Source: Acidobacteriaceae bacterium
GTDB taxonomy: Bacteria; Acidobacteriota; Terriglobia; Bryobacterales; Bryobacteraceae
DNA length: 33,258 bases
Direction of reading: 5' to 3'
Assembly: GCA_020247055.1 (NCBI GenBank)
Contig: JADCJL010000260.1
Span: 1-33,258 of the forward strand
The translations under genes were made by a program, and so were the position numbers. Position 1 is the first letter of the stretch. Each line of letters begins with the position of its first letter. Below are positions 5,618-29,739 of the stretch, piece after piece. Below the pieces are notes generated by a model that saw nothing but the letters and a program-made list of their open reading frames with translations, did no database searches and was not told the origin of the DNA.

Positions 5618-6433
5618 CTACGCCGCTTTCTCCGCCGGCAGCGCCTCGTCCACCCGCGCCACCTTTACCGCCGTAATCACCCCAAGCTTCTCGAGCAGCT
5701 TGATCTGCAAAAACGAAGGATCAAATTCGTACCACGCCAATCCGTGCCGCGCCGACACCGGATGCGCGTGATGGTTGTTGTGCCACCCCTCCCCAAACGT
5801 CAGCAGCGCCACCCACCAGTTGTTCCGCGAATCATCCCGCGTCGCAAACCGCCGCGCGCCCCACAGATGCGTCGCCGAGTTCACAAGCCACGTCGCATGC
5901 AGCCCCACCGTCACCCGCACAAACGAACCCCACAGCAGAAACGGCCAGCCGCCTACCGCAAACAGCAGCGCCGAAACCACCACCAGCGGCAGCCAGTGCC
6001 AGTCGTTCAGCCACACATAAAACGGATCCTTCGCCAGATCCGGCGCGTACTTCGCCATCCGCTTCGTGTCAAAGTGATCGGCCGGCCCCACCAGCATCCA
6101 GCCAATGTGCGCCCACCACGCTCCCTCCCGCGGCGAATGCGGATCGCCCGGCTGGTCGGACTTCTGATGGTGAATCCGGTGCGTCGCCACCCAGAAAATC
6201 GGCCCGCCTTCCAAGGTCAGCGCCCCGCACACCGCCAGAAAATGCTCCAGCCACCGCGGCGCCTTGTAGCCGCGATGCGTGTGCAGCCGGTGATAGCCCA
6301 TGCTGATCCCCAGGCAAATCGCCACCCAGTGCAGAAAGGCCGCCACGCCCAAAGCGGCCCACGAAAAATGAAACAGCGCGGCAACGGCGCCGGAGTGCAG
6401 CACGATCAGAACGATGACGGTCGGCCAGTTCAT
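5618..6433 (-). CDS. Membrane acyl-CoA/acyl-lipid desaturase (delta-9 type)
   Basis: This 271-residue integral membrane protein belongs to the stearoyl-CoA desaturase-like family. All three histidine clusters that bind the di-iron centre are present: HRLHTH (48-53), HRIHH (85-89) and HNNHH (218-222). Hydrophobic segments lie at about 6-45, 65-80, 145-170 and 175-190. The enzyme introduces a cis double bond into fatty acyl chains using O2 and electrons from a carrier that is not encoded here. It is somewhat short for the family and has no fused cytochrome b5. It is first in an operon with a membrane-embedded kinase and its regulator. The ATG at 6433 is preceded by GGAG only 2 bases away, too close to work as a normal RBS, and by TAGCGT 6 bases upstream. 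Confidence 0.94.
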   Translation of the reverse strand: MNWPTVIVLIVLHSGAVAALFHFSWAALGVAAFLHWVAICLGISMGYHRLHTHRGYKAPRWLEHFLAVCGALTLEGGPIFWVATHRIHHQKSDQPGDPHSPREGAWWAHIGWMLVGPADHFDTKRMAKYAPDLAKDPFYVWLNDWHWLPLVVVSALLFAVGGWPFLLWGSFVRVTVGLHATWLVNSATHLWGARRFATRDDSRNNWWVALLTFGEGWHNNHHAHPVSARHGLAWYEFDPSFLQIKLLEKLGVITAVKVARVDEALPAEKAA

Positions 6434-6439
6434 ATCTCC

Positions 6440-6445
6440 ACGCTA
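6440..6445 (-). promoter_or_regulatory. Candidate -10 (TAGCGT) for a leaderless desaturase transcript
   Basis: TAGCGT lies exactly 6 bases upstream of the desaturase ATG, so transcription would begin at or next to the start codon. No -35 hexamer is evident. It is one of seven TANNNT-N(6-8)-ATG arrangements in the window. Confidence 0.45.
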
Positions 6446-6470
6446 CCAGCGCCCCGCGCCGCGCCATGTA

Positions 6471-7496
6471 TTAGTTGTGTAATAGCTTCCGGAGGATCGC
6501 CACGGCCTCTTCGCACCCCGCGCGATCGACGTCGTAGTGCGTCACCGCGCGCAGCCGGTTCGGCCCCATCGCGTTCATCACCACGCCCGCCGCCAGCAGC
6601 TCCTGCGCCATCTGCGCGCCCGTCCGCCCCGTACCCGCCACGTCGAAGAACACAATGTTGGTCCCGGCGTAGGGCTCCACTTTGATCCCCGGCAGCTCCG
6701 CCAGCGCCCCGGCCAGGTATGCCGCGTTCGCATGGTCCTCGCCCAGCCGCCCGCGCATCTGTTCGAGCGCCACCAGCCCGGCCGCCGCCAGCACGCCCGC
6801 CTGCCGCATCCCTCCGCCCAGCCGCTTCCGCAGCAGCCGGCCCTTATCCATCTGCGCCTGCGTGCCCACCAGCATCGATCCGGCCGGTGCGCCCAGCCCC
6901 TTCGATAGACAAAACATCACCGTATCGGCGTACTGCGCAATTTCGGTCGGCGCCACGTTCAGCGCGGTGACGGCATGGAAAAACCGCGCCCCGTCCATGT
7001 GTACCGCCAGGCCGTAGCTCTCGGCCCCCCGCTTGATCTCGGCCAGCTGCTCCAGTGGATACACCGTCCCGCCCGAAACGTTGTGCGTGTTCTCCACCGA
7101 GATCAGCCCCGTCGGCGCCGCGTGCGGCCCCACCGGGCGAATCTCCCGTTGAATCTCCTCCCAGCGCATCTGCCCCGTCGCCGTAGGAATCGCCCGCGCC
7201 AGACAGCCCGCAAACCAGGCCATCATCGAAAGTTCCCAATCGAGCACGTGCGACCGCGAGTCGCAGATCACCTCCTGCCCGTGCTGCGTATGGACGGTCA
7301 GGCCAATCGTGTTTCCCATCGTTCCGGTCGGGACAAACAGGCCTGCCTCCTTACCCATCACCTGCGCCGCCAGCGCTTCCAGCCGGTTAACCGTAGGGTC
7401 TTCCTGATAAACGTCGTCGCCGACTTCGGCTTCGGCCATGGCCCGGCGCATGGCCGGGGTGGGTTTGGTGACGGTGTCACTCCGGAGATCAATCAT
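6471..7496 (-). CDS. ltaE: Low-specificity L-threonine aldolase
   Basis: This 341-residue PLP enzyme cleaves L-threonine or L-allo-threonine to glycine and acetaldehyde. Hallmarks are the N-terminus [31 protein letters not shown], the PTGTMGN segment, HMDGAR (D168, which contacts the PLP ring nitrogen) and the Schiff-base lysine K199 in [12 protein letters not shown]. Length is normal for the family and all key residues are present. The start overlaps the hemW stop as ATGA, so it is the third gene of a cyaY-hemW-ltaE operon. Glycine supply may connect it with haem or one-carbon metabolism, but the link is only positional. Confidence 0.95.
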
Positions 7497-8563
7497 AAAA
7501 ATTCCTGTAATACGTCATTAGAAACCAGCACGCCGCGCGCCGACAGCCGCAGGCGTTCGCCCACGCGCTCAAGCAGCCCGTCGCCCAAAAACCGCGCAAT
7601 CGGCTCGGACCAGCGCGCCAGTTCAGCCGGCTCCGCCACAATCCCTTCGCTTAAGCGCAGACCAACAAAAAACCGTTCACTCGCCGGATCGGCCGCCGTC
7701 GCCTCCCGCCGGCCGGGCCCCTGCTCCACGTACGCCAGCGCCGTCTCCGGGTTCTGCCACCGCTCACCGCCCGCACTCGAATGCGCATCGGCGCCAAAGC
7801 CCAGATACTCCTCCAAGCGCCAATACTTCAGGTTGTGCCGCGACGGCCGTCCAAAATTAGAAACCTCGTACCGCGGCAGCCCCATCGCCTCCAGCCGCTC
7901 AACGGCCCGCTCATACATCGCCGCAATCGCGTCATCGTCCGGAATGTCCCGCGCGCCATACTTCGGGCCGTTGTTCAGAATTTCCAGGCCCAGCCGCGAA
8001 TCCTCATCCACTTCGAGCATGTACACCGAAGCGTGCGGCGGCCTCAACCTTTCGATCCAGTCGAGCGAAACCTCCCAGCTCCCCGCCGTCTGCCCGGGCA
8101 GGCCCGCGATCAGGTCGATGTTGACGTCCGCGATCCCCTCCTCGCGCAGCAGCGCGACATCGGCCGCCACGGTCTCGGCCGTATGCTTGCGGCCGGTCCG
8201 GCGCAACTCCCCGGCGACGAACGACTGCACCCCCAGGCTCACCCGGTTGATCCCCGCCTCGCGCCAGGCGGCCACCTGCTCCCGCGTAAACGATCCCGGC
8301 GCGGCCTCCATCGTCGCTTCGGCCCACGGCCGGCCCGGAATGCGGCGTAGCAACTCGCGCAGGTCATTCAGCGCAATCTGGCTCGGCGTGCCGCCGCCGA
8401 GATAAACGGTCTCCGGCGTCCACGGCCAGGCGGTCTCGTCGAGCTCCCGCCGCAACACCGCCTGATAGCGGTCTTCGAGTTCGCGCGGAAACACCCCGGA
8501 GGCGAAATTGCAATAGGTGCATTTCTGGGCGCAGAACGGAAACGAGAGATAGACGCCGGGCAT
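7493..8563 (-). CDS. hemW: Radical SAM haem chaperone HemW
   Basis: This 356-residue radical SAM protein carries [10 protein letters not shown] at residues 11-20, i.e. the CX3CX2C cluster motif followed by a phenylalanine at the position where the true coproporphyrinogen dehydrogenase HemN has a fourth cysteine. The HemW-type RHNLKYW motif is present in the C-terminal half. This favours a haem chaperone that transfers haem to respiratory enzymes over an oxygen-independent oxidase. Annotation pipelines often mislabel the family as HemN. The ATG directly abuts the cyaY stop codon with no gap, and the gene's own stop overlaps the threonine aldolase start. Linkage to frataxin fits its need for an iron-sulfur cluster. 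Confidence 0.93.
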
Positions 8564-8896
8564 TTAGGAAAGGCTGACGGTCTCACCGAGATGCTCGCTG
8601 ACGTGAGCCGCGATCAGCTCGGCGAGCGATTGACCGGAAGCGGCCAGCACAAAAGCGCCGCGGGCGCCATCCCAGTCCAGTTTGAAGCTCCGCGAGTGCG
8701 CCGAAACCCACACCTGCCGGACCGGCGTCTGTGGACTCACCACGAACTTAGCCCGCGGCTCGTCAAACTCGATGGTCAACGTGCCATTATTGAAGTCGGC
8801 CTCAAAGTCGTACTCATCCGAGGCGGCGGCTAGCGTTTTGAACAGAGCCGTCATGGCGTCTTCGCATTTCAGATGGAACTCTTGTTCGTCGAGCAT
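8564..8896 (-). CDS. cyaY: Frataxin homologue, iron donor protein CyaY
   Basis: This 110-residue protein has the frataxin layout: a helix rich in acidic residues at the N-terminus (MLDEQEFHLKCEDAMTALF), then strands in DFNNGTLTIEFDEPRAKFVVSPQTPVRQVWVSAHSRSFKLDW, and a C-terminal helix (LAELIAAHVSEHLGE). The VSPQTPVRQVWVSA segment matches the family core well. CyaY binds iron and regulates iron-sulfur cluster assembly on IscS/IscU, neither of which is in this window. It is first in an operon with hemW and ltaE and is divergent from bshC. There is no good Shine-Dalgarno sequence; TACCGT lies 8 bases before the ATG. CyaY is best known from Proteobacteria, so its presence here is of some interest. 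Confidence 0.88.
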   Translation of the reverse strand: MLDEQEFHLKCEDAMTALFKTLAAASDEYDFEADFNNGTLTIEFDEPRAKFVVSPQTPVRQVWVSAHSRSFKLDWDGARGAFVLAASGQSLAELIAAHVSEHLGETVSLS

Positions 8897-8904
8897 GAAT
8901 CTTC

Positions 8905-8910
8905 ACGGTA
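8905..8910 (-). promoter_or_regulatory. Candidate -10 (TACCGT) for a leaderless cyaY transcript
   Basis: TACCGT (TANNNT) is followed by 8 bases and then the cyaY ATG, with no Shine-Dalgarno sequence in between beyond GAAG. No -35 is evident. Confidence 0.4.
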
Positions 8911-9030
8911 TCAGAAAGCATCTCTCCCCATACAGTTCTGATAGGCTGATCTTTTGATGACCAAGCGCACCACGCATTGTCGCAGCGCAGAAACGGGGCT
9001 CCCACCCGCGGCCCGCGGGCGCGGAAACGG

Positions 9031-10563
9031 ATGACGACGATCTGCATCCGGCACACCGAACTGCCCGGCACCTCCCGGCTGTTTGCCGATCTGGTCTATC
9101 ACTATGACCGCGTAGCGCCGTTCTACGCCCACGCCCCGTACGATCCGGCCTCGTTTGCCGCCGCCGCGCGGCAGATCCAATATCCCGTCGAGCGCCGTGC
9201 CGCCCTGGTCGCCGCCCTGGCCGAACAGAATCCCGGCAATTCGTCGCTGGCCGTACTGGCCCGCCCGGACGCCGTCGCCGTCGTCACCGGCCAGCAGGTG
9301 GGCCTGTTCTCCGGTCCCTGCTATTCGATCTTCAAGGCGCTATCGGCCATCCGGCTGGCCGAACACTTAACGGCGCAGGGCCTTCCGGCCGTGCCCGTCT
9401 TCTGGCTCGCCACCGAAGATCACGATCTCGTCGAAATCAACCAGGCCTGGGTCTTCAACGCCGCGCACGAGGTGGTAGGGCTGAAGACGGCGGCCGTCAA
9501 TCCGCTGGGCGGCCCCGTGGGGCCGATCCCCGTGGGTGAGGCGCCGCTCGATGAGTTGGCCGCCGCCTTGGCCGGGCTGCCCTACGCCGACGAAGTGATG
9601 GCCATGGTGCGGGAGTGCTACGTGCCCGGGGCCACCTTCGGAGGAGCGTTCCGCGCCTTGGCGCAAAAGCTGCTGGCCCGGTGGCCGATCCTCTTTCTCG
9701 ATCCGCTCGCCCCCGCCATCCGCGCCATCGGCGCTCCGCTGCTTGAACAGGCTGTCGCCCGGGCGCCGGAGTTGAATGCCGCGCTGCTCGAACGCAACGC
9801 GGAGCTCGCCGCGGCCGGTTATCATTCCCAGGTGCACGTAGAAGCCGGCAGCTCGCTGCTGTTTTCGCTCGCCGGAGGCCGCCGCACACCGTGGAAGGGT
9901 GAAGCGGTGGAACCGGCCCTGCTTTCGCCCAACGCCCTGCTGCGCCCCGTGCTGCAGGACTACCTGCTGCCCACGGTCGCCTACTTCGGCGGCCCGGCCG
10001 AGCTGGCCTACTTCGCCCAGTCGCAGGTTCTCTACCAGCGCCTCCTTGGCCGCATGCCCGTTATGCTCCACCGCGCCGGCTTCACCCTGCTCGACGACCG
10101 CACAGCGAAGATCCTCTCCCGCTACGGCCTCAGCGTGACGGATACCCTGATTCACGAAACCGGCTTGCGGGAGCGCCTCGCCGCGAAACTCATCCCGCCC
10201 GGCATCACCGAGAAGGTCGCCGGCCTGCGCGCGAATCTGAGCCAGGAGGTGGAGACGCTCTTCGCCGAAGTCCGCGCCCTCGACCCCACGCTCGAAAAGG
10301 TCCTCGCCACAGGCCGGGTCAAAATGCTCTATCAACTCGAAAAGATGGAGCGCAAAACCGCCCGCCAGGCGCTGCGCCGCGACGAACAGGCCCAGCGGCA
10401 GGCCGCTTATCTGCACCACAGCCTCTACCCGCACCGCCACCTGCAGGAGCGCTTCTACAGCGTGCTGCCGTTCCTCGCTCAGCATGGCCCGGATCTGATC
10501 GAGCGCATCTACGCGCACGTTGAAGTGGCCTGCCCGGATCACCAGGTGCTTCCGATACACTAG
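9031..10563 (+). CDS. bshC: Bacillithiol biosynthesis cysteine-adding enzyme BshC
   Basis: This 510-residue protein matches BshC, proposed to add cysteine to glucosaminyl-malate in the last step of bacillithiol synthesis. Recognisable segments are VVTGQQVGLFSGPCYSIFK, the following PVFWLATEDHDLVEIN, GPAELAYFAQSQVLY and MLHRAGFTLLDDRT, with a coiled-coil-like helical region near residues 390-460 (EVETLFAEVRALDPTLEKV and after). The length is slightly below the usual 530-540. The ATG at 9031 was chosen over an upstream TTG (8977) because the added residues are low-complexity and basic. Other bsh genes are not in the window. The divergent neighbour is cyaY, an iron-sulfur protein factor, which fits a thiol/iron theme. 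Confidence 0.93.
   Translation: MTTICIRHTELPGTSRLFADLVYHYDRVAPFYAHAPYDPASFAAAARQIQYPVERRAALVAALAEQNPGNSSLAVLARPDAVAVVTGQQVGLFSGPCYSIFKALSAIRLAEHLTAQGLPAVPVFWLATEDHDLVEINQAWVFNAAHEVVGLKTAAVNPLGGPVGPIPVGEAPLDELAAALAGLPYADEVMAMVRECYVPGATFGGAFRALAQKLLARWPILFLDPLAPAIRAIGAPLLEQAVARAPELNAALLERNAELAAAGYHSQVHVEAGSSLLFSLAGGRRTPWKGEAVEPALLSPNALLRPVLQDYLLPTVAYFGGPAELAYFAQSQVLYQRLLGRMPVMLHRAGFTLLDDRTAKILSRYGLSVTDTLIHETGLRERLAAKLIPPGITEKVAGLRANLSQEVETLFAEVRALDPTLEKVLATGRVKMLYQLEKMERKTARQALRRDEQAQRQAAYLHHSLYPHRHLQERFYSVLPFLAQHGPDLIERIYAHVEVACPDHQVLPIH
10556..10561 (+). promoter_or_regulatory. Candidate -10 (TACACT) for a leaderless HpcH/HpaI aldolase transcript
   Basis: TACACT ends 6 bases before the ATG at 10568 and overlaps the last codon and the first base of the bshC stop codon. 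No Shine-Dalgarno sequence is visible before the ATG. It could produce a separate leaderless transcript inside what otherwise looks like a two-gene operon. Confidence 0.4.
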
Positions 10564-10567
10564 CGCC

Positions 10568-11335: not shown

Positions 11336-11339
11336 TCGA

Positions 11340-11428
11340 TGGTGCCGAAGGTGGGAGTCGAACCCACATGGGGAGTGAACCCCGGCAGATTTTGAGTCTG
11401 CTGTGTATACCAGTTCCACCACTTCGGC
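11340..11428 (-). tRNA. tRNA-Leu (anticodon CAA)
   Basis: Read on the minus strand, the acceptor stem GCCGAAG (5' end at 11428) pairs with CTTCGGC followed by an encoded ACCA (3' end at 11340). The anticodon stem GCAGA/TCTGC encloses the loop CTCAAAA, giving anticodon CAA for codon UUG. The T-arm GTGGG-TTCGACT-CCCAC is perfect. A long variable arm (GGGG-TTCACT-CCCC) shows a class II tRNA and agrees with leucine. The 89-base gene includes the CCA end. Confidence 0.97.
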
Positions 11429-11440
11429 CCTGACCCTGTC

Positions 11441-11446
11441 AGTATA
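11441..11446 (-). promoter_or_regulatory. Candidate -10 (TATACT) of tRNA-Leu
   Basis: TATACT on the minus strand lies 12 bases upstream of the tRNA 5' end. On the plus strand the overlapping bases read TATAAC, 5 bases before the ATG at 11454, so divergent promoters may share this spot. No convincing -35 is seen for either. Confidence 0.45.
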
Positions 11447-15499: not shown

Positions 15500-15538
15500 A
15501 AATTCGGGGCAAGACTTCCACCAATGTCACAGAAAGAA

Positions 15539-15544
15539 TATCAT
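15539..15544 (+). promoter_or_regulatory. Candidate -10 (TATCAT) for a leaderless ankyrin-protein transcript
   Basis: TATCAT is followed by 6 bases and the ATG at 15551. It supports 15551 over the in-frame ATG at 15524 as the start, because the latter would lie upstream of the inferred transcription start. Confidence 0.45.
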
Positions 15545-15550: not shown

Positions 15551-16834
15551 ATGTTCCTTCCCAAGCGCTTCAGCCTATTGCTCCTATTGCCCATCTGTAT
15601 GGCAGGCGCCGAGGGGAAGCCCGCCGATGAGCGTATCTTTACCGCCGTGCAGAGTGGCGACCAGCGCGCCGTGCTCGCCCTCCTCAAGGCCGGCGTCAAC
15701 GTCAACGCCGCCCGGCCCGACGGTTCGACGCCCCTCAGCTGGGCCGTCAGCCGCGATAACGTCGAAATCACCACCGCCCTGCTGCAGGCCGGCGCCAACC
15801 CGAACGCGGCCGACGAGAACGGCGAAACCCCGCTGACGCTGGCCTGCGCCCAGGGCAATCTGGCCATCGCCCGCCTGCTGCTCAACGCCAAAGCCAACAG
15901 CAGCGTCATCCGCTGGAACGGCGAAACGCCGCTGCACGGCGCCGTCCACTCCGGCAATCTTGAGCTCGTCCGGCTGCTGCTCGAAGGCGGCGCCCCGGCC
16001 AGCCCGCGCGAAGCCCGCCTGGAGCAGACCCCGCTCATGTGGGCCGCCGCCGCCGGCCACGCCGGCATCACGGAGTTGCTGCTGGCCAAGGGTGCCGACC
16101 CCAACGCCAAGTCCAAGAGCGGCTTCACGCCGCTGCTGTTTGCCGCCCAAAAGGGCGACCTCGCTACCGTCAAACTCCTCGTAGCCGCCAAGGCCGACCC
16201 GCTTGCCAAGTCCAAGGACGGCGCCGCCCCCTTCGCCCTCGCCCTGGCCCGCGGGCACGAAGCCGCCGCCCGCTACCTGCTCGATTTCGGCGCCGAGGTG
16301 AACCTGCCCGACACCTCCGGCAACACGCCGGTTCATACCGCCGTCCGGCTCGGTAAAATTGACCTCGTCCGCGACCTCGTCGCCCGCGGCGCCGACCTCA
16401 AGGCCAAAACCACCCGCTCCGGCGTGCAGCGCGGCCCCTTCCGCAGCTTCGGCTTTACCCCCTTCCTGATCGCCGCCGAAGCCGGCGACGTCGCCATGAT
16501 GCGCGAACTCGTTAAACTCGGCGCCGACCCCAAGGCCAAGAGCTCCGATGGGGCCGGCGGCGTCCTCCTCGCGGCCCAGAGCCGGAAGCTCGAAGCCGTG
16601 AAGCTGATGGTGGAGCTCGGCGGCGACGTCAACGAAGAGCGCCCCGGCGGCGGCACCGCCCTGCACATCGCCACCCGCTTCGGCGATAACACGATGATCC
16701 AATACCTCGTCGACCACGGCGGCGACCTGAGCAAAAAAGACCGCTTCGGCCGCGACGTGCTCGGTGAGGCCGAGTTTGAAGCGCCCAAGCCCACCATCGA
16801 ATTCGTCCGGAAGCTCGTCCGGAACAAGCAGTGA
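15551..16834 (+). CDS. Exported ankyrin-repeat protein
   Basis: This 427-residue protein has a Sec signal peptide (MFLPKRFSLLLLLPICMAGA) and then about 11 complete ankyrin repeats plus a partial twelfth, each about 33 residues with the pattern G-TPL-A-G----LLL--GAD-N. The eighth and ninth repeats are separated by a longer loop (TTRSGVQRGPFRSFG). Ankyrin repeats bind other proteins, and a periplasmic location is predicted. An earlier in-frame ATG at 15524 would add nine residues with a glutamate in front of the basic n-region, which is less typical of a signal peptide. The gene is divergent from the DUF1592 copy B and lies just upstream of the sorbosone-dehydrogenase-like gene, so these may serve one exported system. 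Confidence 0.9.
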   Translation: MFLPKRFSLLLLLPICMAGAEGKPADERIFTAVQSGDQRAVLALLKAGVNVNAARPDGSTPLSWAVSRDNVEITTALLQAGANPNAADENGETPLTLACAQGNLAIARLLLNAKANSSVIRWNGETPLHGAVHSGNLELVRLLLEGGAPASPREARLEQTPLMWAAAAGHAGITELLLAKGADPNAKSKSGFTPLLFAAQKGDLATVKLLVAAKADPLAKSKDGAAPFALALARGHEAAARYLLDFGAEVNLPDTSGNTPVHTAVRLGKIDLVRDLVARGADLKAKTTRSGVQRGPFRSFGFTPFLIAAEAGDVAMMRELVKLGADPKAKSSDGAGGVLLAAQSRKLEAVKLMVELGGDVNEERPGGGTALHIATRFGDNTMIQYLVDHGGDLSKKDRFGRDVLGEAEFEAPKPTIEFVRKLVRNKQ

Positions 16835-16840
16835 TAAACT
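16835..16840 (+). promoter_or_regulatory. Candidate -10 (TAAACT) for a leaderless sorbosone-dehydrogenase-like transcript
   Basis: TAAACT follows the ankyrin stop codon directly and lies 8 bases before the ATG at 16849. The intervening bases GCGGGCAT contain no Shine-Dalgarno sequence. Confidence 0.4.
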
Positions 16841-19871: not shown

Positions 19872-20879
19872 CTACATTTCGCTCAGCGCTGCAATCACGG
19901 CCCCGCGGGCCGTAGCGTGCAAAGGTTCGGCGGCCAGCCGCACCTCACTGACCGGAACCGGGAAATCGTTCTGACGCAGCGCCTGCTCAAACCGTTCCCG
20001 AAATCCGCCGGCCAGCACCCCGCCCCCGCTCAGCACCAGCGGTACGGGCCGGCCGAGGCGCGGCAGGCTTTTGGCCTGCTGAAAGACGTCCCGCATGGTC
20101 TGCACGAGCGTCTGAATCACATCGTCGTAGTAGACGCTGAGTACCTGATGCGCTTTATCCGGGCTGATGGGGTTGAAGAAGAAACCGTCTTCTTTGACCA
20201 TCCGGATGCGGTTCACCAGCTCGCCCGTCACCGCGGCGGCGTTCGTGTCGATGAAGTCGCCTCCCTTGGGCACGCTGAACTGAATCACCGGCACCGCCAG
20301 ATAGGACATGCAGACGTTACAGAGGCCGCCGCCGAAGCTGATGCCGATTCCCGTGTAGTTGGACGACTCAAGCTCGCTGTAGATGACGGCCAGGCCTTCG
20401 TTAAGCGGCCTGGCCTCGTAGCCGAGTTCGCCCAGGATCTGCCGCAGCGTAGCCTCGTGATAGGTCAGGCTGTCGTGGGCCCCAATCGGCGGAGCGGGCA
20501 CGCTGAAAAACAGCTTCTGCCGGGCATGAGCGGCGGTTCCCAGCAGTTGGAGCAGCAGATGCTGCATGATCGGCATACTGTCGGGCTCCGCCGGGTTCAG
20601 AAAGCCTTTGGTCATTGGCCGCCGCAGTTCGGCGCCGAGCAGGTCGGCAAAGCGTTCGCTCTCGTTGCCGTGCACGATGATCTCGCTGCCCCGCACGGTG
20701 TGGGGTATGCGCTCTTTCCGCAGCACGCCTTCGGTCATGCGCGAATTGGGCAGCGCGACGAAGGAGTTCAACTGGCTCGTGAATCGATAACCGTGGTCGA
20801 CGGGCCAGGCCGCGACGATTCGGCTGGTGCCGACGTCCAGGCCGACGGGCGTCGAGCCATCCGAGTAGGTGTAGTTCAT
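19872..20879 (-). CDS. Actin-like ATPase (Hsp70/actin fold) with an altered phosphate-2 motif
   Basis: This 335-residue cytoplasmic protein has the actin/Hsp70 superfamily layout. Phosphate-1 is VGLDVGTSRI (12-21), connect-1/phosphate-2 region GIGISFGGGLCNV (177-189), and the adenosine motif LVLSGGGVLAGGFRERF (281-297). The C-terminal PLHATARGAVIAAL also fits. Canonical phosphate-2 is D(I/L)GGGT(T/F)(D/E); here the aspartate is serine (S181) and the last positions are L-C-N, so hydrolysis may be slow or lost. It is not close to MreB, FtsA or ParM by eye. The ATG overlaps the amidase stop as TGATG, so expression is coupled. A cytoskeletal or scaffolding role in envelope growth is inferred from this neighbour. 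Confidence 0.85.
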   Translation of the reverse strand: MNYTYSDGSTPVGLDVGTSRIVAAWPVDHGYRFTSQLNSFVALPNSRMTEGVLRKERIPHTVRGSEIIVHGNESERFADLLGAELRRPMTKGFLNPAEPDSMPIMQHLLLQLLGTAAHARQKLFFSVPAPPIGAHDSLTYHEATLRQILGELGYEARPLNEGLAVIYSELESSNYTGIGISFGGGLCNVCMSYLAVPVIQFSVPKGGDFIDTNAAAVTGELVNRIRMVKEDGFFFNPISPDKAHQVLSVYYDDVIQTLVQTMRDVFQQAKSLPRLGRPVPLVLSGGGVLAGGFRERFEQALRQNDFPVPVSEVRLAAEPLHATARGAVIAALSEM

Positions 20880-22042
20880 CAGTTTCCCTCCAGGGAGAAA
20901 TCGGGCTGCTTGGCGATGCTGTACAGCCGGCGATACCGGGCAGCCAGACCCCGGCGCCAGACCGGTAAGCTCACCTTCCGGGCCAGAGCCGCGCTCTGCA
21001 ACTCGAGATCCGCCGTGTCCAGGCCGCGCCAGAGACGCTCGCCGGTCGCCTTGCGAAAAGAATCGTCGTATTGAAAGCCGAACAGCGTGATGGCTGGCGG
21101 CGGTAACTGGTAGTTGTCGGGCAGGCCAATCTGTTCAAACGGAAAATTCGCCGCCCAATCCGTGTGGTAGCCGATCCCCATGTTATCCGGGTTCACGGAA
21201 ACCTGCGCGTGGGTGACGCAGTTGCGCGCGCTGATCCGGTAGCGGGCCCGCAGCAGATCGGTGAGCAGCCGGCCGGCGTGGATCTGCGGCGCGGTGACCG
21301 GGGTCTGCCCGGTCTCGTCCCGCGACGGGCCCTCGAAAGAGACCCCGAGAAAGCTGGCGTTGAGATTCAGATAAAAGTGCTGCTCTTCGGCCCACACCGA
21401 GTTGCCCGCGTGGTGGGCGGGCTCGCTCTCGGGCACGATCCGCCAGACGCGGCCAAACCGGTCGATCACAAAATGGTAGGCCCGGATGTGGCGGACGTAC
21501 TGCAGCACCCCGGCCCCGATGCGCCGCAGGTTCCGATTCTGCGTCTCCTCAAACGGCAGCGCGTGGCTTTCGGTGGTGTGGAACACAATCCCGTAGGGTG
21601 TGGACCGCTGCTCCAGCTGTTCGGTGGTCGTCCGGAAGCGGACAAAGGGAACCGGCTGCTGGCGGGCCAGCTGATATCGCTTTTCAATCCGCAGACCATT
21701 GCTGTAAAGATCGTGGGTCTCGGCCGACTCGACCAGCCAGACACGGGACAGCTCACCCCCGGGGCCGATCGCCTCGTGCGGAACCGGCCCGTGCTGCCTT
21801 CCCGCGCCGTCGGAAACCGTGGGCACCGGCAGCAGGCCAAGGGCAAGAAGAAAGGCCGACACATAGCGAACCTGGGCGCTGCGGACCGCCCGGTGCAAGG
21901 GACGGCTGGACATAAAAGCCGCACTCCGGCGGAGAAACTGCAGTCGGGCAACCGGTTCGGCGATCCGGTCTGCCCTCCAACTCAGCACCGCCGCGGAAAG
22001 ACGCCGGGGGGGCCGCCACTGGGCTTCGTTGCTTTCTGTCAT
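20879..22042 (-). CDS. N-acetylmuramoyl-L-alanine amidase (Amidase_2/PGRP fold), membrane-anchored
   Basis: This 387-residue protein has a basic N-terminal region of about 60 residues, a hydrophobic helix (YVSAFLLALGLLPVPTVS) that is a signal peptide or anchor, and then an amidase domain. Zinc-site motifs are GIVFHTTESH (first His), YHFVIDRFGRVWRIVPESEPAHHAGNS (in two parts) and NCVTHAQVSVNP with GYHTDW near the end. It should cleave the bond between N-acetylmuramate and the stem peptide. The start at 22042 is backed by TAGTGT 7 bases upstream; a shorter start at 21913 with GGAG 10 bases upstream would give an ordinary signal peptide and cannot be excluded. It is the first gene of the operon with the actin-like and PGQY-repeat genes. 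Confidence 0.88.
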   Translation of the reverse strand: MTESNEAQWRPPRRLSAAVLSWRADRIAEPVARLQFLRRSAAFMSSRPLHRAVRSAQVRYVSAFLLALGLLPVPTVSDGAGRQHGPVPHEAIGPGGELSRVWLVESAETHDLYSNGLRIEKRYQLARQQPVPFVRFRTTTEQLEQRSTPYGIVFHTTESHALPFEETQNRNLRRIGAGVLQYVRHIRAYHFVIDRFGRVWRIVPESEPAHHAGNSVWAEEQHFYLNLNASFLGVSFEGPSRDETGQTPVTAPQIHAGRLLTDLLRARYRISARNCVTHAQVSVNPDNMGIGYHTDWAANFPFEQIGLPDNYQLPPPAITLFGFQYDDSFRKATGERLWRGLDTADLELQSAALARKVSLPVWRRGLAARYRRLYSIAKQPDFSLEGN

Positions 22043-22049: not shown

Positions 22050-22055
22050 ACACTA
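22050..22055 (-). promoter_or_regulatory. Candidate -10 (TAGTGT) for a leaderless amidase transcript
   Basis: TAGTGT lies 7 bases upstream of the ATG at 22042 and no Shine-Dalgarno sequence is present between them. Confidence 0.4.
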
Positions 22056-22878: not shown

Positions 22879-23925
22879 CTATCGGTCGAGCAGCTCGTGA
22901 TAGGCCGTCCAGGTCTGGTCCACAGCCCGATCCCAGGTAAACTCCTCGGCGTGCTTCAGACCGCGTCGCACCATGGTTTCGCGTAGAGTTGGCTGCTCCA
23001 TCAGAGTCCGCAGCGTGAAGCGCAGCTCCTCGACGTCCTCCGGATCGATGTGGAACGCCGCCTCGCCCGTTACCTCCGGCAAGGCCGAGCGATTGGACGT
23101 CACCACCGGCAGCCCCCACGCCATCGCCTCAATCGCGGGAATCCCAAAGCCCTCATCGAGAGAAGGAAACGCAAAGATCGCGGCTTGACCATAAAGCGCC
23201 TCCAGCCTTTGCGGGGAAACGTAGCCGAGCACATCAATCTCCCGCCGGCGCGGACTGGCCGCGATCTGCTCAAGAATCTCCGCTGACCCAAACCCGGTGG
23301 GCGCGCCGGCCAACACGAGCCGCCATCCCGCGGGCAGGCCCTCAAACGCCCGGATTAGCCGACCCGTATTCTTCCGCTTCTGAATCGCTCCGACCGAGAG
23401 AATCCATGGCTGGCGTGCCGGCAGTTCGCTCAACCGTTTGCGCCCCGGGTGCGATACGCCGTGATGTATGACGCGGACCCGGGACCGCTCGACGCCGAGC
23501 AGGCCCGTCACCTGGGAGGCCGTAAACGAGCTCACCGTTAGAATCAGATCGGACCGGTTGGCCGCCTCCCGGGCCTGCGCCGTAAAGCGCGTGCGGAACT
23601 CCAGGGTCGAATAGTCACTCGTCATCACGAATAAGTCATGGAACGTGGTCACCACCCGGTGCCGTCCGGCGAGCCGCGGAACCCGCTGATTCAGCCCGTG
23701 GAAGATGTTCGCGGCGGGCGCCCAGGTTTCAAACAGCGGCCGCCGGGCCGCGCCGCGCGGCAAAAAAGCCTCGAGCGACCGGAGGAGCCGGTGCGGCCGG
23801 TAGCAGAAGTAGTAGCGGGCCGATGGGTGCCGGCGCGGCAGTCCCCACAGAATCTCGCGGGAGTAAACCGCCACCCCGGTCGGTTGGGAACTGACGCTGT
23901 AGGTGGCATCGAGAGCAATCCGCAC
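22879..23925 (-). CDS. Glycosyltransferase family 4-type protein (GT-B fold)
   Basis: This 348-residue glycosyltransferase has the N-terminal Rossmann half (MRIALDATYSVSSQPTGVAVYSREI, with HDLF at 96-99) and the C-terminal GT4 half with WILSVGAIQKRKNTGRLIRAF (about 174-194). The EX7E motif E258-GFGIPAI-E266 (in FPSLDEGFGIPAIEAMAWG) supports nucleotide-sugar binding and retention of configuration. It probably adds a hexose to a cell-surface polysaccharide or lipid; donor and acceptor are unknown. The start is a GTG with GAGGGG 4 bases upstream. It lies alone on this strand between unrelated genes and is slightly shorter than the usual 370 residues. Confidence 0.92.
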   Translation of the reverse strand: MRIALDATYSVSSQPTGVAVYSREILWGLPRRHPSARYYFCYRPHRLLRSLEAFLPRGAARRPLFETWAPAANIFHGLNQRVPRLAGRHRVVTTFHDLFVMTSDYSTLEFRTRFTAQAREAANRSDLILTVSSFTASQVTGLLGVERSRVRVIHHGVSHPGRKRLSELPARQPWILSVGAIQKRKNTGRLIRAFEGLPAGWRLVLAGAPTGFGSAEILEQIAASPRRREIDVLGYVSPQRLEALYGQAAIFAFPSLDEGFGIPAIEAMAWGLPVVTSNRSALPEVTGEAAFHIDPEDVEELRFTLRTLMEQPTLRETMVRRGLKHAEEFTWDRAVDQTWTAYHELLDR

Positions 23926-24005
23926 GTATCCCCTCAGCGTAACACCCGCCCCCGGCGCCAGGGTCGCAGAATACCCTCATTCGGGCGGTACTGCATCCCC
24001 CGGCA

Positions 24006-24938: not shown

Positions 24939-24971
24939 CACTGGAAAAGTGGCCCGCCCGGCCCGAAAGTC

Positions 24972-26000: not shown

Positions 26001-26144
26001 GGGATGGTCTCGACGGATCGGAAGAGTCCGCTCAGCCGAATTAGTGGCAGCCGTATTCCATTACTCTAACTTTTTCTTAAAAACACCCACAATCCATTCG
26101 TAAGGGTTTTATGGGGTGCCGCGTCCCCCCAAAAGGAGGGTTCC

Positions 26145-26849
26145 CTACTCCACGTCCCATCCGATGACGAAGGAGTTGGGAAACTCCGAACGTACCTCGC
26201 GCAATCGCTCCTGCGCCTGCTTCACGCTATCCACCCGGCCCACCAGCACGCGCCAGGACTCTGGCGTGCCCCCCTTCGCCAGCGCCGGCCGGTAGCGGAC
26301 AAACACGTCCCGGTATCGCGCCTTCAGCTTGCCTTCAAGCCACTCCGCATTCTTCCGGTTGCGAGCGGTCGTCACCTGCACGGTGAACTGCCTGCCCCGC
26401 TCATACGCCCGCGGCGGCGCAATCACCGTGAGCTTCACCTTGGCTACTCCCAACCGCACCAGATCAATCTCTTCCGCCGCCGCACGCGACAGATCAATCA
26501 CCCGTCCCTTCACAAACGGGCCCCGGTCGGTGATGCGCACGGCGGTCGTTTGCCGGTTGCTCAGGTTCCGCACCGACACCCACGTCTCAAAGGGCAGCGC
26601 GGGATGCGCGGCCGTCATCGCGTGCATGTTGTACACCTCTCCATTGGCCGCTCGGCGTCCATGATAGGGCTCTCCGTACCAACTCGCCACGCCCTCTTCC
26701 GAGGCGCCCAGCGGCGCTACCGGGCTGCTAATTTTGAGACGCCTGCCGCCGCCGCATCCCACCGCCGCCAAGCTGCCCAACAGCAGCAGCAGATACGCCA
26801 AACCCCTATGTTTATTGGCTCCGAAAGAAACCGACCGCCCGGCTCGCAT
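26145..26849 (-). CDS. rlpA: RlpA-like septal ring lytic transglycosylase lipoprotein with a SPOR domain
   Basis: This 234-residue lipoprotein has a hydrophobic signal ending in AAVGC (lipidated C32). The double-psi beta-barrel domain follows, with GVASWYGEPYHGRRAANGE (53-71), FETWVSVRN and VRITDRGPFVKGRVIDLS (104-121); D108 in TDRGPF is a catalytic-type residue in active RlpA. A C-terminal SPOR domain (about 153-234; FTVQVTTARNRKNAEWLEGKL and SWRVLVGRVDSVKQAQERL) should bind denuded glycan at division sites. The start ATG at 26849 is preceded by GAGAGAGAA about 7 bases away; a GTG at 26867 is possible. Together with the amidase it may help separate daughter cells. Confidence 0.93.
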   Translation of the reverse strand: MRAGRSVSFGANKHRGLAYLLLLLGSLAAVGCGGGRRLKISSPVAPLGASEEGVASWYGEPYHGRRAANGEVYNMHAMTAAHPALPFETWVSVRNLSNRQTTAVRITDRGPFVKGRVIDLSRAAAEEIDLVRLGVAKVKLTVIAPPRAYERGRQFTVQVTTARNRKNAEWLEGKLKARYRDVFVRYRPALAKGGTPESWRVLVGRVDSVKQAQERLREVRSEFPNSFVIGWDVE

Positions 26850-26934
26850 AACGACATTCTCTCTCACTTTCGTTTTTTATGCGAAAACACTCAGCATTTT
26901 GCCACTCTGCGGTCCGGCCGGCCTACTTTTTTTC

Positions 26935-26963
26935 TTGACTTTACGAGGGAAGAACTTTATATA
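26935..26963 (+). promoter_or_regulatory. Strong sigma-70-type promoter of the PAKKAAA-repeat gene
   Basis: TTGACT (26935-26940) and TATATA (26958-26963) are separated by exactly 17 bases. Transcription would start near 26970, giving a 5' UTR of about 50 bases with an AGGGAG ribosome site 9 bases before the ATG. It is the best match to the housekeeping promoter consensus in the window, as expected for an abundant nucleoid protein. Confidence 0.8.
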
Positions 26964-27021
26964 TGGTCACAACCGCGTTCTCTCTGGAGAGCGCCAGAAA
27001 GATGTTAGGGAGAATCACTCT

Positions 27022-27360
27022 ATGAAGAACGCAACCACCCCACCGAAGCCAGCCCCGGCCAAGAAGGCTGCCGCGCCCGCCAAGAAGGCTGCGGCTCCGG
27101 CCAAGAAGGCTGCCGCGCCCGCGAAGAAGGCTGCGGCTCCGGCTAAGAAGGCTGCCGCGCCCGCGAAGAAGGCTGCTGCGCCCGCGAAGAAGGCCGCTGC
27201 TCCGGCCAAGAAGGCCGCTGCTCCGGCCAAGAAGGCCGCCGCGCCCGCGAAGAAGGCTGCCGCTCCGGCCAAGAAGGCCGCTGCTCCGGCCAAGAAGGCC
27301 GCCGCGCCCGCGAAGAAGGCTGCTGCTCCGGCGAAGAAAGCCGCTGCGAAGAAAGCGTAG
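27022..27360 (+). CDS. Histone H1-like Lys/Ala/Pro repeat protein
   Basis: This 112-residue protein consists of an 11-residue lead (MKNATTPPKPA), 14 perfect copies of the heptad PAKKAAA (residues 12-109) and a short KKA tail. It resembles the repetitive C-terminal tails of eukaryotic H1 and of bacterial AlgP/Hc1/HupS-type DNA-binding proteins, but has no folded domain. It should be strongly basic and bind DNA without sequence preference. It has a strong promoter, a good ribosome site and a terminator, so it is a single-gene transcript. Synonymous codons vary between units (GCC/GCT/GCG, CCC/CCG), so the amino-acid repeat appears to be maintained by selection. Confidence 0.9.
   Translation: MKNATTPPKPAPAKKAAAPAKKAAAPAKKAAAPAKKAAAPAKKAAAPAKKAAAPAKKAAAPAKKAAAPAKKAAAPAKKAAAPAKKAAAPAKKAAAPAKKAAAPAKKAAAKKA
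27055..27348 (+). repeat. 14 tandem 21-bp repeats encoding PAKKAAA
   Basis: The repeat has a constant amino-acid unit and varied third codon positions. Long open frames on the opposite strand here (Phe/Ala/Gly or Leu/Ser/Arg repeats) are by-products. Copy number may change by slippage, and assembly errors are possible. Confidence 0.95.
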
Positions 27361-27394
27361 TTTCTCGCTTCCTCTATTCCTTCCCACAACCAAC

Positions 27395-27420
27395 ACAGCC
27401 CCGGTTTCCCCCGGGGCTGT
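27395..27420. terminator. Hairpin terminator between converging genes
   Basis: ACAGCCCCGG (27395-27404) pairs perfectly with CCGGGGCTGT (27411-27420) around TTTCCC. Only a weak T-rich stretch (AATCATTTT) follows on the plus strand. It separates the repeat protein gene from the MidA-like gene and overlaps no coding sequence. Confidence 0.75.
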
Positions 27421-27422
27421 AA

Positions 27423-28349
27423 TCATTTTGGGGCCCTGTTTACGGGCCTTTCGCGCTTTGTGAACCACAGCGCGCGAAACGACTCTCCGAGATCAAACAG
27501 CAGCGTCTTCAACTGCAGCCGCCGCGCCGCATCCCCCGCCAACTCGAGAAACCGGAACTCATCCGCCTCGCCGATCCTCAACAAAAACGAACCCAGCGAC
27601 TCACTCCGTTCGAGCGCAAACCCCCCGTCGGCGGCCAGGCGCTCCAGGGCCGCGAAGGGCACGTGGGCCGTGATGTCCTGTTGTCCCGGATCGCGCAACA
27701 CATCGTCAATCGCACAGTGCCGCCGGTAGCTCAGCAGCGACCCCTGCGGAAACCGAATCCGCTCGCGCTCCGTGTAGCCATAATCGATCACCAGCAGATG
27801 GCCGGCCGCCGTGTGCGCTGCAACCTGCTGCATCGCGCGCTCCATGCCCACGGGCGCTTCCACCACCTCGACCTCCGCCGCCACCTTCGGATCGAACGCC
27901 ACCGCCGCGCCCGGCTGCCACACGAAACGGTCCCCGCGCCATCCCACCCGCCGCTCGCGCCATCCCTCCGCGCTGCGTTCGATCACATCCACGGGCAGCG
28001 CATCAAAGAACTCGTGCGCCAGCACAAGGCCGCCGAAATTCTCCGGCCACGCGCCGTAGCCGATGTCGATCGGCGTGTACTCCAAGCCCCCGAACGTCTC
28101 GCCCAGCGCTGCCCGCCCCGCGCCCAACTGCACGACGCTGGCGATCCCCTGGTGCTCGCACCAGCGCCGCAGCAGCAGGCCGAACACCGGCTGCAGCTGC
28201 TCGGCCGTATAGTAGTCGCCCTCACGTCCAAAGTGGTCCCGGCGGTAGTAACCGCCCGCCGGATCGTACAGCGCTACCTCCATGAAGCGGGAGAACGGAA
28301 TCGGTCCCAGGCGGGCAATCTCGGCCCGCAGCGAATCGGCAATCGACAT
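27423..28349 (-). CDS. SAM-dependent methyltransferase of the MidA/NDUFAF7 family
   Basis: This 308-residue protein has the family N-terminus (LGPIPFSRFMEVALYDPAGGYY), then the SAM-binding glycine motif in VVQLGAGRAAL, the hallmark HEFFDALPVDVIE (NEFFDALP in most members), and LLVIDYGYTERE. Mitochondrial relatives dimethylate an arginine of complex I subunit NDUFS2; the bacterial substrate is not established. The length is a little under the usual 340-390. The ATG at 28349 was chosen because GAGGG lies 5 bases upstream; a longer frame would reach 28415 and overlap the start region of the divergent permease gene. Confidence 0.9.
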   Translation of the reverse strand: MSIADSLRAEIARLGPIPFSRFMEVALYDPAGGYYRRDHFGREGDYYTAEQLQPVFGLLLRRWCEHQGIASVVQLGAGRAALGETFGGLEYTPIDIGYGAWPENFGGLVLAHEFFDALPVDVIERSAEGWRERRVGWRGDRFVWQPGAAVAFDPKVAAEVEVVEAPVGMERAMQQVAAHTAAGHLLVIDYGYTERERIRFPQGSLLSYRRHCAIDDVLRDPGQQDITAHVPFAALERLAADGGFALERSESLGSFLLRIGEADEFRFLELAGDAARRLQLKTLLFDLGESFRALWFTKRERPVNRAPK

Positions 28350-28399
28350 CTGCTCCCTCAGCTTCGCACGCCCCGCTCGCTCTTTTGCGCCGGAAAGCA

Positions 28400-28405
28400 T
28401 AGAAT
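28400..28405 (+). promoter_or_regulatory. Candidate -10 (TAGAAT) for a leaderless permease transcript
   Basis: TAGAAT lies 8 bases before the ATG at 28414; the intervening AACGGGCC has no Shine-Dalgarno character. It is placed in the 64-base divergent gap with the methyltransferase gene. Confidence 0.45.
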
Positions 28406-28413
28406 AACGGGCC

Positions 28414-29739
28414 ATGCTCCCTGCCTACATCACGCAAACCAAACCGAACCCGGCTTCCAACCGAGCTCCGTGGTTCACTAACACTGCGCCCACCTACGCC
28501 GGCGTCTTTCTCTGGATCGTCTTCTACCAGACCATGGCGCAGGGCACCATCGACCGCGCCAGCCTCGGCGTCTGCATCGCCGCCCTCGCCGCCGCCGGCC
28601 TCATCTGCTACGCGCTCTTCTACTACGTGCCCGGCATGCTCGGCATGAAGACCGGCTTCCCGCTCTACGTCATCGGCAGCTCCACCTTCGGCACCCTCGG
28701 CGGCTACCCCATGCCGGGCCTCTTCATGGGCCTGCTGCAGGTGGGCTGGTTCGCCGTGGGCACGTTCACCTCCACCCGCTTCATCCTCATGGGTCTTGGC
28801 CTTGACCCCACCGCCGGCACCCCCACCTTCTGGCTCGTCGCCGCGCTCTGGGCCTACATCATGGCCACCATCGGCATCCTCGGCATCCAGTACGTCGCCC
28901 GCGCCTCGCTGTTCCTCAATGCCATTCCGCTGCTGATGATCCTGGTCGTCTTCTTCCGTGTGCAGGGCGGCATCAGCCAGCATCAGCCAACTTCGACCGA
29001 TAACTGGGGCGCCATCGCCACGATCCTCCAAACCGTCATCGGCTTCTTCGCCACCGCCGGCGCCGCCGGCGTCGACTTCGGCATGAACTCCCGCGATGAA
29101 AAAGACGTCCGTCTCGGCGGCCTCGTCGGCATCGCCGGCGCCATCCTCATCGCCGGCGGTCTGCCGCTGCTCTCGGTGGCTGGCGCCCGCGTCCTGAACC
29201 CGGCCATCACCAGCTACAGCTACGACGCCGTCATCGGCTCGATGGGCGGCGCCATGGCCACCTCCATGTTCTTCCTGTTCGCTCTCGCCTCCATCGTCCC
29301 GGCCTGCTTCTGCGCCTTCATTGCCGGCAACAGCTTTGCCACCATGCTCCCCGGCGTCTCCCGCTCGCTGTCGACGCTGGTCGGCGTCACCATCGCGCTG
29401 GTGCTCGCGGGCACCGGCGTAGCCGCCGACCTGCCCGGCGTCTTCGGCCTGGTGGGCGCCTCCTTCGGCCCCATCTGCGGCGCCATGGTGGCGGACTACT
29501 GGCTTAGCGGCTTCCGCTGGGCCGGTCCGCGCGAAGGCATCAACTGGGCCGGTTACGGCGCCTGGGCGCTAGGCTTCATCGTGGGCATCTCCCCGGCGCT
29601 GAACCTCAACCTCGGCGTCGAGCCGCTGGCGCTTTCGAGCTTCGTCGTCGGCTTCGCCGTCTACACCGTCCTCGCCAAGGCCGGCCTGCAGCCGAAGGTA
29701 GTGAGCGAGCCGGTCGCCCTCGCCGCCGGCCAGAGCTAA
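28414..29739 (+). CDS. NCS1-type purine/cytosine permease-like transporter
   Basis: This 441-residue membrane protein has about 12 predicted transmembrane helices, from YAGVFLWIVFYQTMAQG near the N-terminus to SSFVVGFAVYTVLA near the C-terminus. The GGYPMPGLFMGLLQVGWFAV region, the helix with ATAGAAGVDFGMNSRDEKDV and the ADYWLSGFRWAGP segment resemble the NCS1 (CodB-like) nucleobase:cation symporters. A cytosine or related substrate is likely but not certain, and no nucleobase catabolic gene is adjacent. It converges on der with a gap of only 4 bases. There is no ribosome site, so start assignment rests on the N-terminal Pro/Thr/Asn-rich cytoplasmic segment and the -10 at 28400. Confidence 0.85.
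   Translation: MLPAYITQTKPNPASNRAPWFTNTAPTYAGVFLWIVFYQTMAQGTIDRASLGVCIAALAAAGLICYALFYYVPGMLGMKTGFPLYVIGSSTFGTLGGYPMPGLFMGLLQVGWFAVGTFTSTRFILMGLGLDPTAGTPTFWLVAALWAYIMATIGILGIQYVARASLFLNAIPLLMILVVFFRVQGGISQHQPTSTDNWGAIATILQTVIGFFATAGAAGVDFGMNSRDEKDVRLGGLVGIAGAILIAGGLPLLSVAGARVLNPAITSYSYDAVIGSMGGAMATSMFFLFALASIVPACFCAFIAGNSFATMLPGVSRSLSTLVGVTIALVLAGTGVAADLPGVFGLVGASFGPICGAMVADYWLSGFRWAGPREGINWAGYGAWALGFIVGISPALNLNLGVEPLALSSFVVGFAVYTVLAKAGLQPKVVSEPVALAAGQS

What the first reader, a model, noticed from the sequence alone, without database searches (positions are those of the whole stretch)
6431..28416. Recurrent TANNNT-N(6-8)-ATG: widespread leaderless transcripts
Seven starts have an exact TANNNT hexamer 6-8 bases before the ATG and no usable Shine-Dalgarno: desaturase (TAGCGT-6), cyaY (TACCGT-8), HpcH-type aldolase (TACACT-6), ankyrin protein (TATCAT-6), sorbosone-dehydrogenase-like (TAAACT-8), amidase (TAGTGT-7) and permease (TAGAAT-8). 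der (GATAAT-6) and typA (GAGAAT-7) come close. In GC-rich DNA this hexamer is rare by chance. The genes concerned are mostly first genes of transcripts, while genes inside operons overlap instead. The pattern matches leaderless promoters known from Deinococcus and Actinobacteria. It also helps choose starts, for example 15551 over 15524 and 22042 over 21913.
Basis: partly seen in the sequence, partly recalled or inferred. Interest (0 to 1): 0.7.

Follow-up and report, generated by a model that had tools for sequence, protein, structure and literature searches.

The report
Leaderless gene starts in an Acidobacteriota genome
Many genes in this bacterium appear to have their promoter right against the start codon, so their messages would begin at the gene itself; [quoted passage not shown]

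Summary
All seven hexamers are at the stated places. In a 677-kb sample of the same genome (Bryobacteraceae or close by, Acidobacteriota), with starts called without looking upstream, TANNNT at 6-8 bases before the start occurs at 77 of 522 genes against 13.9 ± 3.5 in shuffles. The peak at 6-9 amounts to about 14% of genes and excludes Shine-Dalgarno sites (7% against 40%). It is frequent at divergent genes (43 of 144), nearly absent at overlapping genes (1 of 104). Six of the seven hexamers are conserved in orthologues; the amidase one is not.

The mechanism, a sigma-70-type -10 box placed so that transcription starts at or near the start codon, is inferred; no transcript was mapped. It is not new: Zheng et al. 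2011 (PMC3160421) predicted leaderless genes in 3 of 3 Acidobacteria, 9.7-19.4%.

One correction: the hexamer also sits between tightly spaced same-direction genes (20 of 129 with gaps 1-30). In 28 of 57 such cases pooled from seven genomes the preceding stop codon is part of the -10 box. Four paper searches naming stop codons showed no description of that; the evidence is post hoc and moderate.

The parts
5615..5620 (-). TAGGCT, -10-like box 6 bases before GTG 5608; its first three bases are the stop codon TAG of the desaturase gene (5618-5620)
   Evidence: kept in 4 of 4 distinct orthologues
6440..6445 (-). TAGCGT, 6 bases before ATG 6433 (fatty acid desaturase)
   Evidence: 5 of 5 distinct orthologues
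8905..8910 (-). TACCGT, 8 bases before ATG 8896 (cyaY)
   Evidence: 10 of 10 distinct orthologues, down to 56% protein identity
10556..10561 (+). TACACT, 6 bases before ATG 10568 (HpcH/HpaI aldolase); its last T is the first base of the bshC stop codon TAG (10561-10563)
   Evidence: 4 of 5 distinct orthologues
15539..15544 (+). TATCAT, 6 bases before ATG 15551 (ankyrin-repeat protein)
   Evidence: TATCATTTCTTCATG unchanged in the six relatives listed; 2 of 2 distinct orthologues with aligned start
16835..16840 (+). TAAACT, 8 bases before ATG 16849 (glucose/sorbosone dehydrogenase-like); directly follows the stop codon TGA of the ankyrin gene (16832-16834)
   Evidence: 8 of 10 distinct orthologues
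22050..22055 (-). TAGTGT, 7 bases before ATG 22042 (N-acetylmuramoyl-L-alanine amidase); start supported, hexamer poorly conserved
   Evidence: 1 of 5 distinct orthologues
28400..28405 (+).
   Evidence: 5 of 5 distinct orthologues
31079..31084 (-). GATAAT, 6 bases before ATG 31072 (der); near miss here, exact TANNNT in more distant orthologues
   Evidence: 9 of 14 distinct orthologues have exact TANNNT at 6-10
32643..32648 (+). GAGAAT, 7 bases before TTG 32656 (typA); near miss
   Evidence: sequence printed and blind start call

Best explanation
The hexamers are -10 boxes of the housekeeping sigma factor, placed so that RNA polymerase starts at or within a few bases of the start codon. The transcripts are therefore leaderless or nearly so, and are read by ribosomes that recognise the 5'-terminal start codon without a Shine-Dalgarno site. 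About one gene in seven in this genome is of this kind: many are first genes, but some lie a few bases downstream of another gene, where the promoter lies in or just after the end of the preceding gene. Shown: position, enrichment, exclusion of Shine-Dalgarno sites, conservation. Inferred: -10 function, the transcription start, and initiation on a 5'-terminal start codon.
For: Sharp peak at spacings 6-9 (34, 21, 22, 11 against a mean of 4.1) in 522 genes; 77 at 6-8 against 13.9 ± 3.5 in shuffles. Of twelve other hexamer patterns none gave a peak of this size; the largest was T...AT, 19 at spacing 6, which shares sites with TANNAT. Divergent 43/144, gap 1-30 20/129, overlapping 1/104. Shine-Dalgarno tetramer in 7% of hexamer genes, 40% of the rest, 11% in a control position; the 16S rRNA 3' end keeps CCTCC, so both routes should exist. 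In 153 hexamers at 6-9 (own sample, G009, G032), positions 4 and 5 are poor in T (12 and 8) compared with 179 TANNNT elsewhere upstream (45 and 47), as in a -10 box. Whole genome: 610 TANNNT-N6-ATG against 372 with the frame-matched spacing 15. The method finds the peak in D. deserti and Rhodococcus plasmids and none in 100 kb of E. coli.
Against: No transcript start is mapped. No -35 enrichment upstream of the hexamers (mean best match 2.75 against 2.72) and no significant extended -10 TGN (21/153 against 17/179, p = 0.23). Smaller excesses at spacings 11 and 12 (12 and 10) suggest that some starts have leaders of a few bases. The amidase hexamer (1/5) and that at 23925 (2/8) are not conserved. 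The orthologues are kin, so agreement among the nearer ones is partly descent. The yardsticks D. deserti and Rhodococcus gave only 4.5% and 4.9% excess, well below the roughly 30% of ORFs that PMC12340547 reports for Deinococcus-Thermus (passage), so the percentages are not calibrated.
Confidence: 0.92

Rival explanations
1. The hexamers are chance AT-rich matches, picked by eye together with convenient starts.
For: The bare pattern is not enriched over the window as a whole (3 against 2.18 expected); two of the seven starts (ankyrin, amidase) differ from the blind calls; the amidase hexamer is not conserved.
Against: 77 of 522 blind starts against 13.9 ± 3.5 in shuffles; orthologues 50/68 against 0/57 in control genes.
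Confidence: 0.03
2. The hexamers are -10 boxes, but transcripts have short leaders of a few bases, with translation helped by lack of structure or by protein S1 rather than by a 5'-terminal start codon. This overlaps with the best explanation.
For: Spacings of 8-9 and a lesser excess at 11-12 would allow leaders of about 2-6 bases.
Against: The main peak is at 6, which puts the usual start point (recalled spacing) on the A of ATG, and the count is at baseline at spacing 10.
Confidence: 0.15
3. The upstream TA-containing element is a translation signal (an A/T-rich enhancer), not a promoter.
For: It sits at a fixed distance from the start codon, as a translation signal would.
Against: It is nearly absent before genes that overlap the preceding gene (1 of 104), which need translation signals but usually no promoter; positions 4-5 favour A/C and avoid T, the form of a -10 box.
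Confidence: 0.03

Closest known systems
'TA-led' (leaderless) genes of Zheng et al. 2011, BMC Genomics 12:361 (PMC3160421; passages seen)
   Same: TANNNT about 12 bases before the start, more than in dinucleotide shuffles, fewer where operon-distal genes are many; Table 2 lists Acidobacteria, 3 of 3 genomes, average 13.3% (9.7-19.4), close to the 13.7% found here
   Different: Koribacter and Solibacter are not named in its main text (0 occurrences each), so I do not know which Acidobacteria were used; [quoted passage not shown]
-10 motif adjacent to ORFs in Deinococcus-Thermus (PMC12340547; abstract and passages seen)
   Same: Same TANNNT motif with a spacing requirement to the ORF; reported there, with experiments, to act as a -10 region for leaderless mRNA
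   Different: Different phylum, experimentally supported, about 30% of ORFs on average in that phylum; 'stop codon' and 'acidobacteri' do not occur in its main text
Leaderless mRNAs of Bradyrhizobium japonicum (PMC4842269; passages seen)
   Same: Transcription starts mapped exactly at start codons (192) with a -10-type motif upstream
   Different: Its motif is an extended -10, TGnTA; here TGN is not significantly enriched
Leaderless transcriptome of Mycobacterium tuberculosis (PMC3898074; listing only)
   Same: The words leaderless and TANNNT both occur in the paper
   Different: Mapped transcription starts; distant phylum; I saw only the listing

Membership tests
Bacterial leaderless (TA-led) genes | TANNNT about 10-12 bases upstream of the start, above shuffled expectation | tested here: met
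   77 of 522 against 13.9 ± 3.5, 200 shuffles; peak at spacing 6-9
Bacterial leaderless (TA-led) genes | No Shine-Dalgarno site at the same genes | tested here: met
   7% of hexamer genes have a Shine-Dalgarno tetramer, below the 11% of the control position over all genes; 40% of the others have one
Bacterial leaderless (TA-led) genes | First genes of transcripts rather than operon-internal genes | tested here: inconclusive
   Divergent 43/144 against overlapping 1/104 fits; 20/129 genes at gaps of 1-30 also carry it, and whether these are internal or first genes cannot be told without transcripts
Bacterial leaderless (TA-led) genes | Conserved at orthologous starts | tested here: met
   50 of 68 distinct orthologues against 0 of 57 for control genes; fails for the amidase (1/5) and 23925 (2/8)
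Bacterial leaderless (TA-led) genes | Transcription starts on or next to the start codon | not testable with these tools
   needs 5'-end mapping; one search for Acidobacteri* with transcription start sites and dRNA-seq returned 0 papers
Bacterial leaderless (TA-led) genes | Translation by recognition of a 5'-terminal start codon | not testable with these tools
   needs translation assays
Sigma-70-type promoter with -35 element | -35 hexamer TTGACA 15-19 bases upstream of the -10 box | tested here: not met
   Mean best match 2.75 (153 hexamer genes) against 2.72 (759 others); TTGAC 1/153 against 4/759. A -10-only promoter read by the same sigma factor remains the working model
Extended -10 promoter | TGN directly before the -10 box | tested here: inconclusive
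   21/153 against 17/179 at TANNNT elsewhere, p = 0.23; the cyaY and GSDH boxes of the window do read TGATANNNT

The most novel reading that the evidence does not exclude
In this acidobacterial lineage, gene pairs that look like operons are often separate transcription units, because the stop codon of the first gene is built into the -10 box of a leaderless promoter for the second. Either TAA/TAG forms bases 1-3 of TANNNT (gaps of about 9-12), or the T of the stop is base 6 of the box (gaps of 4-7). One short sequence would then encode the end of one protein, a promoter and, a few bases on, the start of the next gene. This use of stop codons would shape gene spacing and break distance-based operon prediction.
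Probability: 0.45. Interest if true: 0.5.

Novelty: new member of a known kind. Interest (0 to 1): 0.36.

Why it matters
About one gene in seven here would start without a ribosome-binding site. Gene finders that expect Shine-Dalgarno sites may misplace such starts (15524 against 15551 in this window), and operon predictors based on gene distance may join genes that have their own promoter. If the stop-codon/-10 fusion holds, it suggests how a GC-rich genome finds TA-containing promoters between tightly packed genes.

Tried and rejected
A simple pattern count in the window gave no enrichment and is not a test of starts. The reversed-pattern control that the genome search adds has a different base rate, so I compared the same hexamer at the frame-matched spacing 15. 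Nucleotide conservation between G009 and G017 was uninformative because the two are too similar (hexamer kept in 23 of 24, at a control position 13 of 14). I looked for a -35 element and for TGN and found neither enriched. I suspected that TAG stops are chosen to build promoters, but TAG is common at stops in this genome in general (69 of 156 convergent genes). I had thought that a gene on the minus strand starts at 28415, overlapping the start codon at 28414; coding score and orthologues put its start at 28349. G035 is partly masked (36% N) and its estimate depended on the gene caller (1.0%, 7.9%). The first gene sets (465 genes) were replaced by a retrained set; the own-genome excess changed little (14.5%, 13.7%).
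Full report
What was checked. The window is contig 180 of a 6.56-Mb, 358-contig genome. Its nearest named relatives are metagenome-assembled genomes labelled Bryobacteraceae, Candidatus Sulfopaludibacter, Acidobacteriales and Acidobacteria, so it belongs to Bryobacteraceae or close by, phylum Acidobacteriota.

Is it chance? Over the whole window TANNNT-N6-ATG is not enriched (3 against 2.18 expected), so the test must be made at gene starts. I took 40 stretches of the same genome plus the window (676,847 bases, about a tenth of the genome; contigs taken by number or because they held hits, without regard to promoters). I called genes by codon-pair score with no information from upstream sequence. 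In 522 starts the hexamer count by spacing 0-12 is 3, 4, 0, 4, 1, 2, 34, 21, 22, 11, 4, 12, 10, with a mean of 4.1 at spacings 16-49. The excess at 6-9 is 72 genes, 13.7%. At 6-8 there are 77 genes against 13.9 ± 3.5 in 200 dinucleotide shuffles, maximum 24. In the first gene set (465 genes) none of twelve other hexamer patterns gave a peak of this size; the largest was T...AT with 19 at spacing 6, which can share sites with TANNNT.

Context. The hexamer at 6-8 precedes 43 of 144 divergent genes, 20 of 129 same-direction genes at gaps of 1-30, and 1 of 104 overlapping genes. Shine-Dalgarno tetramers are found in 7% of hexamer genes and 40% of the others; the control position gives 11%. The 3' end of the 16S rRNA carries the usual CCTCC, so the two initiation routes should coexist. 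'First genes, while operon genes overlap instead' is right as a tendency and incomplete.

Conservation. For ten window genes (the seven, der, 5608 and 23925) I collected orthologues whose start aligns and whose upstream 40 bases differ from the window and from each other by more than two bases; nearer copies were dropped. 50 of 68 have TANNNT at 6-10, against 2 of 68 at 16-20. For eleven other window genes, chosen because the window lacks the hexamer there, the counts are 0 of 57 at 6-10 and 6 of 57 at 16-20 (bshC 3, the PhoD gene 3). By gene: desaturase 5/5, cyaY 10/10, HpcH 4/5, ankyrin 2/2, GSDH 8/10, amidase 1/5, 28414 5/5, der 9/14, 5608 4/4, 23925 2/8. So the amidase hexamer and 23925 are not supported. 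Part of the agreement among near relatives is descent; cyaY, GSDH and der, whose orthologues go down to 56%, 54% and 61% protein identity, weigh most. der has GATAAT or AATAAT in the window's closer kin and exact TANNNT in more distant orthologues, so the near miss is probably the same kind of box. Start choice: TATCATTTCTTCATG before the ankyrin gene is unchanged in the six relatives listed, while the ATG at 15524 is ATG in one, GTG in two and AAG in one of the four that align without a shift; the ATG at 22042 is kept in six of six relatives listed, the hexamer in two of these six.

Form of the promoter. In 153 hexamers at spacing 6-9 (own sample, G009 and G032), positions 4 and 5 avoid T (12 and 8) compared with 179 TANNNT elsewhere upstream (45 and 47). 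There is no -35 enrichment (mean best match 2.75 against 2.72) and no significant TGN (21/153 against 17/179). This fits a -10 box without a conserved -35. In Bradyrhizobium the motif of leaderless mRNAs is an extended -10, TGnTA (PMC4842269, passages).

Breadth. The same pipeline gives excesses at 6-9 of 11.5% (G009), 14.0% (G017), 5.8% (G028), 17.1% (G032), 7.9% (G035, partly masked and unstable) and 9.6% (G089). Of 60 phylum genomes, 49 have more TANNNT-N6-ATG than TANNNT-N15-ATG, 22 of them significantly after correction for 60 tests; 38 do not pass. The six of the same class have ratios of 0.97-1.29; the window's own genome has 610 against 372. This bare count is not limited to gene starts and has little power: G089 has a ratio of 1.05 there. 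D. deserti and Rhodococcus plasmid DNA show the same peak at 6 (excess 4.5% and 4.9%); 100 kb of E. coli does not. The D. deserti figure is far below the roughly 30% of ORFs given for Deinococcus-Thermus in PMC12340547 (passage), perhaps because these are plasmids, so the percentages should be read as comparative only.

What is known. Zheng et al. 2011 (PMC3160421, passages read) predicted leaderless genes in 3 of 3 Acidobacteria, average 13.3% (9.7-19.4). The finding is therefore a new member of a known kind, and my 13.7% agrees with that figure. A search for Acidobacteri* with transcription start sites and dRNA-seq returned no paper. Leaderless with Acidobacteria returned eight papers and with Acidobacteriota four, of which I opened passages of PMC3160421 and PMC10783764 only; the passages of the latter give anti-Shine-Dalgarno statistics for classes of the phylum, not leaderless promoters.

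A further observation. In close same-direction pairs (301 pairs with gaps of 1-30 from seven genomes, out of 332 before similar junctions were removed), 57 downstream genes have the hexamer at 6-9. In 28 of these the preceding stop codon shares bases with the box: in 18 the stop is its first three bases, in 9 the T of the stop is its last base, and in 1 it lies in the middle. No other overlapping register is possible, given TANNNT and the three stop codons. By genome, fused of hexamer pairs: own 10 of 21, G009 5 of 12, G017 7 of 12, G028 1 of 1, G032 4 of 6, G089 1 of 5; G035 has no hexamer pair. One junction present in G009 and G017 with a one-base shift was counted twice; without it the totals are 27 of 56. 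Stop codons supply TA for free, so the share alone proves little. Two tests do not depend on that. Among TAA/TAG stops, T at the place of base 6 is found in 17 of 41 pairs at gaps of 9-11, against 26 of 132 at other gaps (p = 0.006). TA five bases before the stop is found in 9 of 67 pairs at gaps of 4-7 (8 of 66 without the double), against 1 of 234 (p = 7e-6 as counted). Within the genus alone: 13/30 against 16/99 (p = 0.003) and 7/52 against 1/172 (p = 0.0002). In the window's own genome alone: 6/16 against 10/61 (p = 0.07) and 3/30 against 1/99 (p = 0.04). Outside the genus the numbers are too small to count as support; G035 (0/4 against 1/9) and G089 (1/3 against 5/11) show nothing for the first test. 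These tests were thought of after seeing the data and are not corrected for multiple tests. In the window, 5608 (stop TAG of the desaturase as bases 1-3) and hpcH (TACAC|TAG, end of bshC) are examples. In more distant members of the genus the bshC-hpcH junction reads, by eye, TGA followed by TAGAAT or TACAAT, again six bases before the ATG (L164, L166, L167, L168), while L163 has a spacing of 9 and L165 has no hexamer: where the box is kept, its distance to the start is mostly kept although the stop has moved. D. deserti (0 of 25), Rhodococcus (0 of 15) and E. coli (0 of 9) show no hexamer in close pairs, but the numbers are small and two of the three are plasmids.

Is the fusion in print? Four of my eight paper searches named stop codons; their listings suggested no such paper. 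I opened passages in five listed papers: PMC4842269, PMC6319747, PMC3890552, PMC6448022 and PMC6728331; none of the passages shown describes a stop codon as part of a -10 box. Zheng 2011 and PMC12340547 do not contain 'stop codon' in the main text. The other listed papers were not opened for this, so it is weak evidence of novelty.

Verdict. Observation confirmed. Interpretation supported, with the transcription start inferred. Known in the phylum at the level of prediction. The stop-codon/-10 fusion is the only part that may be new.

Noticed in passing
window 19872-20879 (-): Nearly full-length match to Pfam PF25216 Volactin (E 2.3e-77), next to an amidase gene; I recall volactin as an archaeal actin relative, so its presence in this bacterium may deserve a look.
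   Followed up: no
own-genome sample and G009 stretch: TAG is the commonest stop codon of convergent genes (69 of 156 in the own sample, 37 of 62 in G009) in a genome of about 64% GC, where I would expect TGA (recalled).
   Followed up: partly
window 8896-9031: cyaY and bshC diverge; in relatives such as G016 and G009 the cyaY box and a TGATAGNCT box before bshC lie on opposite strands of the same short stretch, while the window has a GC-rich stretch before bshC instead.
   Followed up: partly
own-genome sample: Lesser excess of TANNNT at spacings 11 and 12 (12 and 10 against 4.1), possibly promoters with leaders of about 5 bases.
   Followed up: no
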